This document shows positions 4,277-50,604 of a stretch of DNA of 64,000 nt, piece by piece (within the stretch, counting starts at the first letter, position 1; each line of letters starts with the position of its first letter). Under the pieces are notes generated by a model, which was not told the origin of the DNA, made no database searches, and worked only from the letters and a program-made list of their open reading frames with translations. The DNA is taken from the NCBI RefSeq assembly GCF_024298905.1, contig NZ_CP101154.1:2666001-2730000 (forward strand), read 5' to 3'. Source of the DNA: Natronomonas marina (GTDB lineage Archaea; Halobacteriota; Halobacteria; Halobacteriales; Haloarculaceae). The position numbers were made by a program, and so were the translations under genes.

Positions 4277-4687
4277 TTTTGTACGGCTGTTCGCTCTCGG
4301 CGAGCGGTCGGCAAGAACCTGGGGTGCGAGGTCGTTCGAGAGAGCTTTGCTCTCTCGTGATGACGAGAGACGCCGGATGGGTCTCTCGGACCACGGCTCC
4401 GCCGCCTCGGTATGTTGAACGGCGCCTGCGGCGCCGTGAAACATAGCGTGTACTCCGTCGGCTCGCTTCGCTCGTGCGGATGCTCGATAAAGCAGCCGCG
4501 AGCGCGCCGCAGGCGCGCGAGCGGTTCTCCGGCGGCGAGCGGAGCGAGCCGCCGGCCTTTTTTCATCGACGTTTTTCAAGGAGAGGTTCCCGCAGCGCGG
4601 CCCGCAGGGCCGCGCGAGGAAAACCGACGCGGAAAAAGGTCGCTGCGAATGAACAGATTCAGTACGGGGAGGGACCTAACCGCGACC
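4277..4687. repeat. Intergenic hairpin cluster
   Basis: This 411-nt gap holds no convincing gene. It contains at least five short inverted repeats: 4337-4357 (9-bp perfect arms, loop ttt); 4411-4445 (imperfect palindrome with a perfect core at 4419-4437, loop tgc); about 4501-4519 (one mismatch, loop gca); 4529-4555 (8-bp perfect arms, 11-nt loop) followed by six T; and 4596-4614 (8-bp perfect arms, loop gca). Several share a gca or tgc trinucleotide loop while the arm sequences differ. Confidence 0.75.
4529..4563 (+). terminator. Hairpin followed by T-tract
   Basis: Perfect 8-bp arms at 4529-4536 and 4548-4555 are followed by T6 at 4558-4563. The arrangement resembles an intrinsic terminator for transcripts leaving the M42 peptidase gene. 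It lies about 250 nt past that stop and is one of several hairpins here, so the role is inferred. Confidence 0.4.
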
Positions 4688-50129: not shown

Positions 50130-50198
50130 CCGGACGCGACCGCAGGGAGTGTCCGGTAGCGCGCGCGGACTAACGCGCTCGACCGCAGGGAGAGCGCG
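50130..50198. repeat. Two hairpins with an identical 11-nt loop
   Basis: Two adjacent hairpins have different arms but the same loop gaccgcaggga: arms 50130-50137/50149-50156 (one mismatch) with loop 50138-50148, and arms 50174-50180/50192-50198 (7 bp, perfect) with loop 50181-50191. The conservation of loop but not stem suggests a family of RNA- or DNA-structural elements. No gene overlaps them. Confidence 0.7.
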
Positions 50199-50225
50199 GC
50201 AGGAGCACGCGCGCATATTTTCCCC

Positions 50226-50274
50226 ACGTTTTTGCCGACCCCCTCGCGCAGCGAGAGGGTCGTGTAAAAAGTGG
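50226..50274 (-). terminator. Long imperfect inverted repeat downstream of tfs
   Basis: About 23 nt on each side of a gca loop are complementary with a few mismatches; the inner arms pair 9 of 10 positions. On the minus strand, directly after the tfs stop, the sequence reads ctttttac then the GC-rich hairpin. The U-run plus hairpin suit a transcription end for tfs. Confidence 0.45.
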
Positions 50275-50277
50275 TTG

Positions 50278-50604
50278 CTAGTGATCGTCCTCGCGCCACT
50301 TGTGCTCGCACTCGGTGCAGGTGAAAAACCGGGTCTCGGACTCGTCGGCGGCCCGGATCTGCTTCATCTCGTAGCGGGCCCGGTCGTGGCCGCACTCGGG
50401 ACAGCGAACCTCGGTCGTCGGGCCGATCTCCTCGTCGTCGACCTCGGACATGTCGACGGGACCGCTGTCGGTGTCCTGTCCTTCCGTCGTCGTCATCGCG
50501 CTCTCGGTGCCGGCGTCGCGGGCCTTCTCGAAGCCGCAGGAACGACAGACCCACACCCCGTCCTCGCCGTGCATCATCGAACCGCACTCGTCGCAAAACT
50601 CCAT
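50278..50604 (-). CDS. Transcription factor S (TFS/RpoM-like)
   Basis: A 108-residue transcript-cleavage factor for archaeal RNA polymerase. The N-terminal RPB9-like ribbon has CDECG and CRSCG (Cys4, 7, 20, 23). The C-terminal TFIIS-type ribbon has CPECG and CTECEHKWRE. The catalytic acidic tip, normally RSADE, reads RAADESETRF and retains the Asp-Glu pair. A minus-strand TATA-like element at 50629-50637 lies about 29 nt upstream of ATG 50604 and sits in the divergent promoter shared with the MFS gene. Confidence 0.93.
   Translation of the reverse strand: MEFCDECGSMMHGEDGVWVCRSCGFEKARDAGTESAMTTTEGQDTDSGPVDMSEVDDEEIGPTTEVRCPECGHDRARYEMKQIRAADESETRFFTCTECEHKWREDDH

What the first reader, a model, noticed from the sequence alone, without database searches (positions are those of the whole stretch)
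50130..50198. Twin hairpins with an identical 11-nt loop
Two stems with different arm sequences present the same loop, gaccgcaggga, in the gap downstream of tfs. This suggests a repeat family recognised through the loop, by protein or RNA. Comparable short palindromes are, to my recollection, common between haloarchaeal genes, but their role is not settled.
Basis: partly seen in the sequence, partly recalled or inferred. Interest (0 to 1): 0.5.

Follow-up and report, generated by a model that had tools for sequence, protein, structure and literature searches.

The report
Gene-end multi-hairpin repeat in haloarchaea
The two look-alike hairpins are parts of a larger repeated DNA element that sits just behind the stop codons of dozens of genes in some salt-loving archaea and may act as a two-way transcription stop.

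Summary
The hairpins (50130-50156, 50174-50198) are two stems of a multi-hairpin element, 160-263 nt in 70 measured copies, whose A5/T5 tract lies 7 nt from the tfs stop codon. The own genome has 30 copies at E<=3e-7. Of 20 Natronomonas genomes 12 have 5-56 matches and 8 have 0-1. The 26 matching genomes of 295 from the phylum are all in the same order. In 77 of 94 parsed copies an opposite-strand ORF stops 3-10 nt beyond the tract (random positions 3.5%).

The 'identical 11-nt loop' is not a free loop, nor what is conserved. It is GA-N-C-GNA-G-N'-GA: tandem G.A mismatches, a covarying pair (125 of 131 Watson-Crick), then C(GNA)G. Arms and tips differ between copies. GNA caps 152 of 170 parsed hairpins 1 and 2; none has GNRA or UNCG. 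GNA/GNNA are the very stable DNA mini-hairpin loops, so folding as single-stranded DNA is a live possibility.

Best explanation: a gene-end-docked, two-way terminator/insulator repeat; close rival: a PATE-like mobile element. Anatomy, family and placement are shown; function is inferred. My literature searches found no description of it.

The parts
50130..50156 (+). hairpin 1: CCGGACGC / GACCGCAGGGA / GTGTCCGG; tandem GA/GA 8 bp up, then C-G, C-G, GCA cap
   Evidence: sequence; parse
50156..50159 (+). GTAG at the 5' foot of stem P3; invariant in the 10 aligned own copies
50159..50164 (+). P3, 5' strand (GCGCGC), pairs with 50209-50214
50168..50173 (+). GACT-AA, 5' side of the P3 internal loop; the T pairs as a conserved T.G with GGAG in 95 of 107 rows
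50174..50198 (+). hairpin 2: CGCGCTC / GACCGCAGGGA / GAGCGCG
50199..50205 (+). GCA-GGAG, 3' side of the P3 internal loop; GGAG invariant in the 10 aligned own copies
50209..50214 (+). P3, 3' strand (GCGCGC)
50216..50222 (+). TATTTTC: first + strand T tract ending in C, directly after P3
   Evidence: sequence; T-stretch-plus-C is the intergenic termination motif of Haloferax (PMC7237163 passages)
50224..50233 (+). left arm CCACGTTTTT of the T5/A5 inverted repeat; second + strand T tract
50236..50262 (+). hairpin 3: variable stem with GCA cap at 50248-50250 (one C.A mismatch)
   Evidence: helix 9 varies on both sides in all 8 pairs
50266..50274 (-). right arm AAAAAGTGG; on the - strand CCACTTTTT, the T5 tract a few nt downstream of the tfs stop codon
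50278..50604 (-). tfs (TFIIS-like), the gene at whose 3' end the element is docked; stop codon at 50278-50280
4496..4642 (+). second, minimal relative in the window: hairpin 0 (4496-4524), TTC, hairpin 1 CCGGCGGC/GAGCGGAGCGA/GCCGCCGG (4529-4555), T6C, GTTTTT, hairpin, AAAAAGGTCG; no P3
   Evidence: read from sequence; only a weak model match there, E 0.88

Best explanation
The twin hairpins are hairpins 1 and 2 of a dispersed multi-hairpin element that docks, in one orientation, directly behind the stop codons of genes, mostly housekeeping, in a Natronomonas clade. Shown: the family, its covarying fold on one strand, its placement, its T tracts on both strands. Inferred: it is a two-way transcription stop. 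The host gene's transcript ends in the T5 a few nt after its stop codon; transcripts arriving from the other side meet the hairpins followed by T4-5C and a second T5 and end before running antisense into the gene. The 11-nt 'loop' is a compact cap (tandem G.A pairs, one pair, C(GNA)G). Because many stems with such a cap seem to do, arms and tips drift and are exchanged between copies.
For: Stop codon of an opposite-strand ORF 3-10 nt after A5 in 77 of 94 parsed copies against 3.5% of 20000 random positions and 3 of 144 other A5 tracts; 23 of 30 own copies have it at +4..+9. T5 within 12 nt of the stop in only 3 of 273 heuristically called native genes. T tract plus C on the + strand right after the hairpins; in Haloferax a T5C insert gave 95% and a hairpin 59% termination (PMC7237163 passages). 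Eight pairs of elements in opposite orientation, each arranged as for two converging genes. The same gene ends keep an element, often of another subtype, in several species. Covariation: 94.4% of cells paired, 531 cells changed on both sides against 181 in shuffles, 25 of 33 pairs with such changes. Host genes by Pfam: TFIIS-like, 4Fe-4S protein (NuoI-like), PcrB/GGGP synthase, PurH, glutamine synthetase, acyl-CoA dehydrogenase, succinyl-CoA ligase, COX3, DNA polymerase D large subunit, F420-dependent oxidoreductase: 10 of 10 scanned have a family.
Against: No transcript data for any of these species. The A5/T5 tract was part of the search pattern, so its presence in the 94 copies is by construction. 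Four hairpins and invariant GTAG, GACT and GGAG blocks are more than a terminator needs. In the gene's own direction the T5 precedes hairpin 3 instead of following a hairpin. 17 of 94 parsed and 7 of 30 own copies lack the close stop codon. The left neighbour is converging in 15, tandem in 10, unclear in 5 of 30 own copies, near the genome's 0.477, by a noisy caller that misjudged the window copy, so a need to stop incoming transcripts is not visible. The minimal elements at window 4496-4642 and at nuoI of two other species lie in the opposite orientation.
Confidence: 0.42

Rival explanations
1. A non-autonomous mobile element of the PATE kind (palindrome-associated transposable element), moved as folded single-stranded DNA, that lands behind stop codons; termination is a by-product that makes the landing harmless.
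For: Sharp 5' end ((A)GCATCCGC, preceded by A in 63 of 70; unrelated flanks), no coding capacity, no target duplication beyond chance, palindromes near both ends, as in PATEs (PMC3119063 sections and passages). 30-56 copies in some genomes, 0-1 in sister species. GTAG at a hairpin foot as in REPs.
Against: Y1 transposase genes do not track copy number: none found in high-copy G011 (88% complete), one with an internal TGA in the own genome, 3-5 in low-copy G003, G008, G017, G019; but PATEs in Haloquadratum move although IS200-type transposases there are broken, so this is weak. The element model has no match better than E 0.71 in 20 loci around Y1 genes, where BLAST gives only scattered short matches. 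The narrow 3-10 nt spacing and persistence at the same genes in several species are unusual for free transposition. No empty site against a near-identical strain was available.
Confidence: 0.33
2. A family of structured non-coding RNAs made from the + strand, ending at the T tracts.
For: Covarying fold; G.U exceeds A.C on the + strand in the fitted alignment, 193 to 18 cells, including a conserved T.G; T tracts follow the fold.
Against: No promoter-like rise in A+T at a fixed distance; TATA-like words in 5 of 70 against 1 of 70 in the control stretch. No Rfam match near threshold. No GNRA or UNCG cap in 262 parsed hairpins, while a similar scan of the same genome's rRNA finds 9 GNRA and no C(GNA)G. 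125 of the 193 G.U cells come from two columns, and an unfitted parse gives G.T and A.C equal, 12 and 12.
Confidence: 0.12
3. A protein-binding or cruciform-forming site in double-stranded DNA, read from the palindromes themselves.
For: Nearly perfect arms (1528 Watson-Crick pairs against 24 G.T or A.C in hairpins 1 and 2); the T5/A5 inverted repeat with covarying outer pairs.
Against: GNA against its complement TNC is 152 to 4 in hairpins 1 and 2, so one strand is favoured (inheritance by descent could add to this); arm sequences are not conserved.
Confidence: 0.08

Closest known systems
PATEs of haloarchaea (Haloquadratum, HqIRS elements)
   Same: Short, non-coding, no terminal inverted repeats, no target duplication, palindromes near the ends, heterogeneous between copies, many copies (PMC3119063 sections 28-29 and passages)
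   Different: Here the element is locked to stop codons, carries T tracts and a T5/A5 inverted repeat, has GNA-capped hairpins throughout, and its ends were not found at Y1 loci. I did not compare PATE sequences themselves.
REP/BIME repeats with GTAG tag and RAYT transposase
   Same: GTAG at the foot of an imperfect hairpin, variable arms, many copies between genes (PMC3733652 passages)
   Different: REPs are 20-40 bp; this is 160-263 nt with several hairpins, fixed to stop codons, and copy number does not follow Y1 transposase genes.
Haloarchaeal T-stretch and hairpin terminators (Haloferax)
   Same: T stretch with C behind genes; hairpins that stop transcription (PMC7237163 passages)
   Different: Those are described as short motifs; this is a dispersed multi-copy element with T tracts on both strands.
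Extraordinarily stable DNA mini-hairpins, d(GCGAAGC) type
   Same: Cap rule GNA or GNNA on G-C pairs (PMC4686876 passages)
   Different: That paper deals with oligonucleotides; here the rule recurs in a natural repeat. Stability was not measured here.

Membership tests
PATE | no terminal inverted repeats | tested here: met
   ends AGCATCCGC and AAAAAGTGG are not complementary (sequence)
PATE | no target duplication | tested here: met
   words shared by the two 20-nt flanks of 70 copies are no longer than in permuted pairs; one nuoI 3'-end duplicate in G003 is an exception beside a minimal relative
PATE | near-terminal palindromes | tested here: met
   hairpin 0 at the 5' end, T5/A5 repeat at the 3' end
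PATE | palindromes similar to those of IS605-type transposons | tested here: inconclusive
   no model match better than E 0.71 and only scattered short BLAST matches in 20 loci around Y1 genes; TnpB-only elements not searched
PATE | strain-specific insertions | not testable with these tools
   no near-identical strain at hand; species-level presence and absence only
REP/RAYT repeats | GTAG tetranucleotide at one end of a palindrome | tested here: met
   GTAG invariant in 10 aligned copies, 5' foot of P3
REP/RAYT repeats | single palindrome of 20-40 bp | tested here: not met
   160-263 nt, several hairpins
REP/RAYT repeats | associated Y1 (RAYT) transposase | tested here: not met
   Y1 genes do not follow copy number in 14 genomes
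T-stretch transcription terminator | T stretch close behind the gene | tested here: met
   T5 3-10 nt from the stop codon in 77 of 94
T-stretch transcription terminator | stops transcription in vivo | not testable with these tools
   no transcript data
DNA mini-hairpin caps | GNA or GNNA loop closed by G-C pairs | tested here: met
   152 GNA plus 5 GTCA of 170 hairpins 1 and 2
DNA mini-hairpin caps | exceptional stability as DNA | tested here: inconclusive
   the energy tables at hand give GNA and TNC triloops equal energies; DNA folding does not favour hairpin 1
Rfam RNA families | match over the gathering score | tested here: not met
   two sub-threshold matches only, E 0.41 and 3.2

The most novel reading that the evidence does not exclude
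The element acts as folded single-stranded DNA. The strand opposite the gene's coding strand, when displaced (R-loop, replication, transfer), folds into a chain of GNA-capped DNA hairpins with tandem sheared G.A pairs. Selection on DNA rather than RNA shape keeps the caps, which would make this a natural, genome-wide use of the d(GCGAAGC) mini-hairpin rule to mark, protect, terminate or mobilise gene ends.
Probability: 0.3. Interest if true: 0.8.

Novelty: new variant of a known kind. Interest (0 to 1): 0.55.

Why it matters
A repeat family kept in shape rather than in sequence, fixed to gene ends, with caps that follow a DNA rather than an RNA stability rule, would make two questions testable in one system: how haloarchaea end and insulate closely packed genes, and whether genomes select DNA hairpin shape in vivo. 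It also shows that a 'shared loop' in a pair of hairpins can be a structured cap with compensating changes.

Tried and rejected
A fixed recognition loop: rejected, caps and inner pairs vary. REP/RAYT membership: GTAG fits, size and transposase do not. Classical MITE: no complementary ends, no target duplication beyond chance. Stand-alone ncRNA gene: little promoter signal. Terminator of the left-hand gene: no excess of converging neighbours (noisy). Carriage on plasmids, phages or viral contigs: none found with one exact pattern and one 161-nt query in two collections. A stability ranking of caps failed because the energy tables gave GNA and TNC triloops equal values. Literature: ten answered searches (one search was about DNA mini-hairpins) listed no paper whose title or abstract start describes this element. 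Most subscription papers are not held, and of the papers opened I saw an abstract, sections or passages only; the PATE tables in supplements were not seen.

Full report
OBSERVATION. The 11-mer occurs 23 times in the 3.99-Mb genome, 3 for the backward pattern; 16 of 23 are flanked by stems of 5 or more pairs with many different arms. The generic module is mostly not in a hairpin: 4 of 33 in 464 kb.

THE LARGER THING. Lining up the surroundings shows the hairpins inside a longer layout. In + strand order: (A)GCATCCGC, hairpin 0, TTC, hairpin 1, GTAG at the foot of stem P3, GACT..hairpin 2..GGAG inside P3, T tract with C, CCACGTTTTT arm, hairpin 3, AAAAAGTGG, then the stop codon of a gene on the other strand. 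The window copy has no recognisable hairpin 0 (by eye). From GCATCC to A5 the length is 160-263 nt in 70 copies.

HOW MANY AND WHERE. A covariance model of the 3' core, built from 10 own copies, finds 43 own matches at E<=1, of which 30 at E<=3e-7. Of 60 genomes near the own one, 41 have a match at E<=0.01; of the 20 of the same genus, own included, 12 have 5-56 matches and 8 have 0-1 (some of the latter are incomplete). The genus is Natronomonas by its nearest tfs relatives. A small tree of two gene fragments from ten genomes separates the five high-copy from the five low-copy ones with local support 0.93, so the expansion looks clade-specific. Of 295 genomes from the phylum 26 match at E<=1e-4, each labelled own, same genus, family or order (strict filters). 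The T-tract pattern occurs 1-15 times in six genomes of other genera of the family, in none of four from other families, with the backward control at 0 in all 24 genomes.

PLACEMENT. Ninety-four distinct copies fitted a regular expression; 36 of 141 loci gave none that fitted. An opposite-strand ORF of 60 or more codons stops 3-10 nt after A5 in 77 of 94 and within 27 nt in 85; 9 have none within reach. Controls: 3.5% of random positions, 3 of 144 other A5 tracts. Of the 30 own copies 23 have the stop at +4..+9, one at +27, six none. Ten host proteins scanned, out of 24 own ORFs found, all have Pfam families of ordinary enzymes or machinery. Native genes rarely have T5 so close: 3 of 273 called genes. 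Eight pairs of oppositely oriented elements lie as if behind two converging genes (L026, L164, L172, L175, L180, L200, L204, L226).

SAME GENE ENDS, DIFFERENT TIPS. By eye, the tfs end carries the element in the window, L083 and L085, and not in eight other Natronomonas or Natronomonas-like loci (L084, L086-L092). The window's hairpin 1 differs wholly from that of L083 and L085 and resembles one seen in other copies such as L040 and L217, so the copy looks mosaic. At nuoI an element is present in the own genome, G011, G018 and as a variant G002; G003 and G019 have a minimal relative in the other orientation; G005, G008, G010 and G017 have none. At purH it is present in the own genome and G011, 2 of 10. 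At glnA in the own genome and, shortened, G014, 2 of 6. At the best-matching acyl-CoA dehydrogenase genes, full or variant forms stand in the own genome, G002, G010, G011 and G014, 5 of 7, orthology not verified.

THE CAP. Positions 3 and 9 of the '11-nt loop' form a Watson-Crick pair in 125 of 131 such tips (G-C 50, C-G 41, A-T 34). Hairpin 1 carries GA/GA 6, 7 or 8 bp above its base (3, 58, 14 copies) in 75 of 94, with 52 different sequences. In one copy the hairpin-2 GA/GA is replaced by GA/TC (L016). Of 84 parsed hairpins 1 and 86 hairpins 2, 76 and 76 end in GNA, 4 and 0 in TNC, 5 hairpins 2 in GTCA, none in GNRA or UNCG; hairpin 3 is mixed, 29 GNA and 10 TNC of 67 triloops. Another parser gave 69 and 71 C(GNA)G- or C(GTCA)G-capped hairpins 1 and 2. 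Background: 13 C(GNA)G and 11 C(TNC)G of 365 triloop hairpins with stems of 6 or more in 464 kb. A similar scan of the genome's rRNA, which looks at local complementarity and not at the true fold, gives 9 GNRA and no C(GNA)G at stems of 5 or more. GNA and GNNA are the loops of very stable DNA mini-hairpins (PMC4686876 passages).

RNA OR DNA. Covariation is strong, but that alignment was fitted to the structure. On it G.U exceeds A.C on the + strand, 193 to 18 cells, 125 of them from two columns: the + strand folds as a single strand, as RNA or DNA. A parse that penalised both alike found them equal, 12 and 12 in hairpins 1 and 2, 8 and 8 in P3. Promoter signals before the element are weak. Energy models do not favour DNA folding of hairpin 1 and do not tell the triloops apart. 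I hold the DNA reading at 0.3.

FUNCTION. T tracts directly behind the stop codon, hairpins plus T4-5C on the other strand, paired elements and persistence at the same gene ends fit a two-way terminator or insulator; Haloferax data show that T5C and some hairpins terminate (PMC7237163 passages). The PATE reading is close behind: sharp ends, no target duplication, near-terminal palindromes, many copies. The two are compatible; a mobile element can carry a terminator.

NOVELTY. PATEs and REPs are the nearest kinds. The words Halo and Natronomonas do not occur in the main text of the 2025 REP survey (PMC12306157), nor Halo in the GTAG-repeat paper (PMC3733652) or in a survey of inverted repeats (PMC13155455), which does report peaks behind stop codons in archaea. 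The part of the N. moolapensis genome paper shown mentions no such repeat (PMC3623002). I call it a new variant of a known kind.

Noticed in passing
window 4380-4642: A minimal relative of the element (hairpin 0, hairpin 1, T tracts, A5) behind a peptidase-like + ORF, in the other orientation, with degenerate element-like sequence on the - strand just before it.
   Followed up: partly
G000:C1:840510-841141: GACCGTAGGGA occurs ten times on the - strand at a 69-bp spacing, a tandem array.
   Followed up: no
L257, between nuoI and nuoJ of G003: Two elements and a duplicate of about 75-80 nt of the nuoI 3' end lie between nuoI and nuoJ; other species have different inserts there, so this gap is a hot spot of change.
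   Followed up: partly
L004, L007, L023: A shared stretch around ATTCGGGGAAGTTATTGAGGAAAAC lies near several copies and is probably another repeat or IS.
   Followed up: no
L033, right flank: A palindrome CCCACCCCTTTAGGGGTGGG and the start of a TnpB-like ORF stand directly at the element's right end, as if an IS605-type element had inserted there (recognised from memory).
   Followed up: no
L084 and L089, behind tfs: Two relatives have an unrelated long inverted repeat (GGATTGTTGTA..TACAACAATCC) at the same gene end.
   Followed up: no
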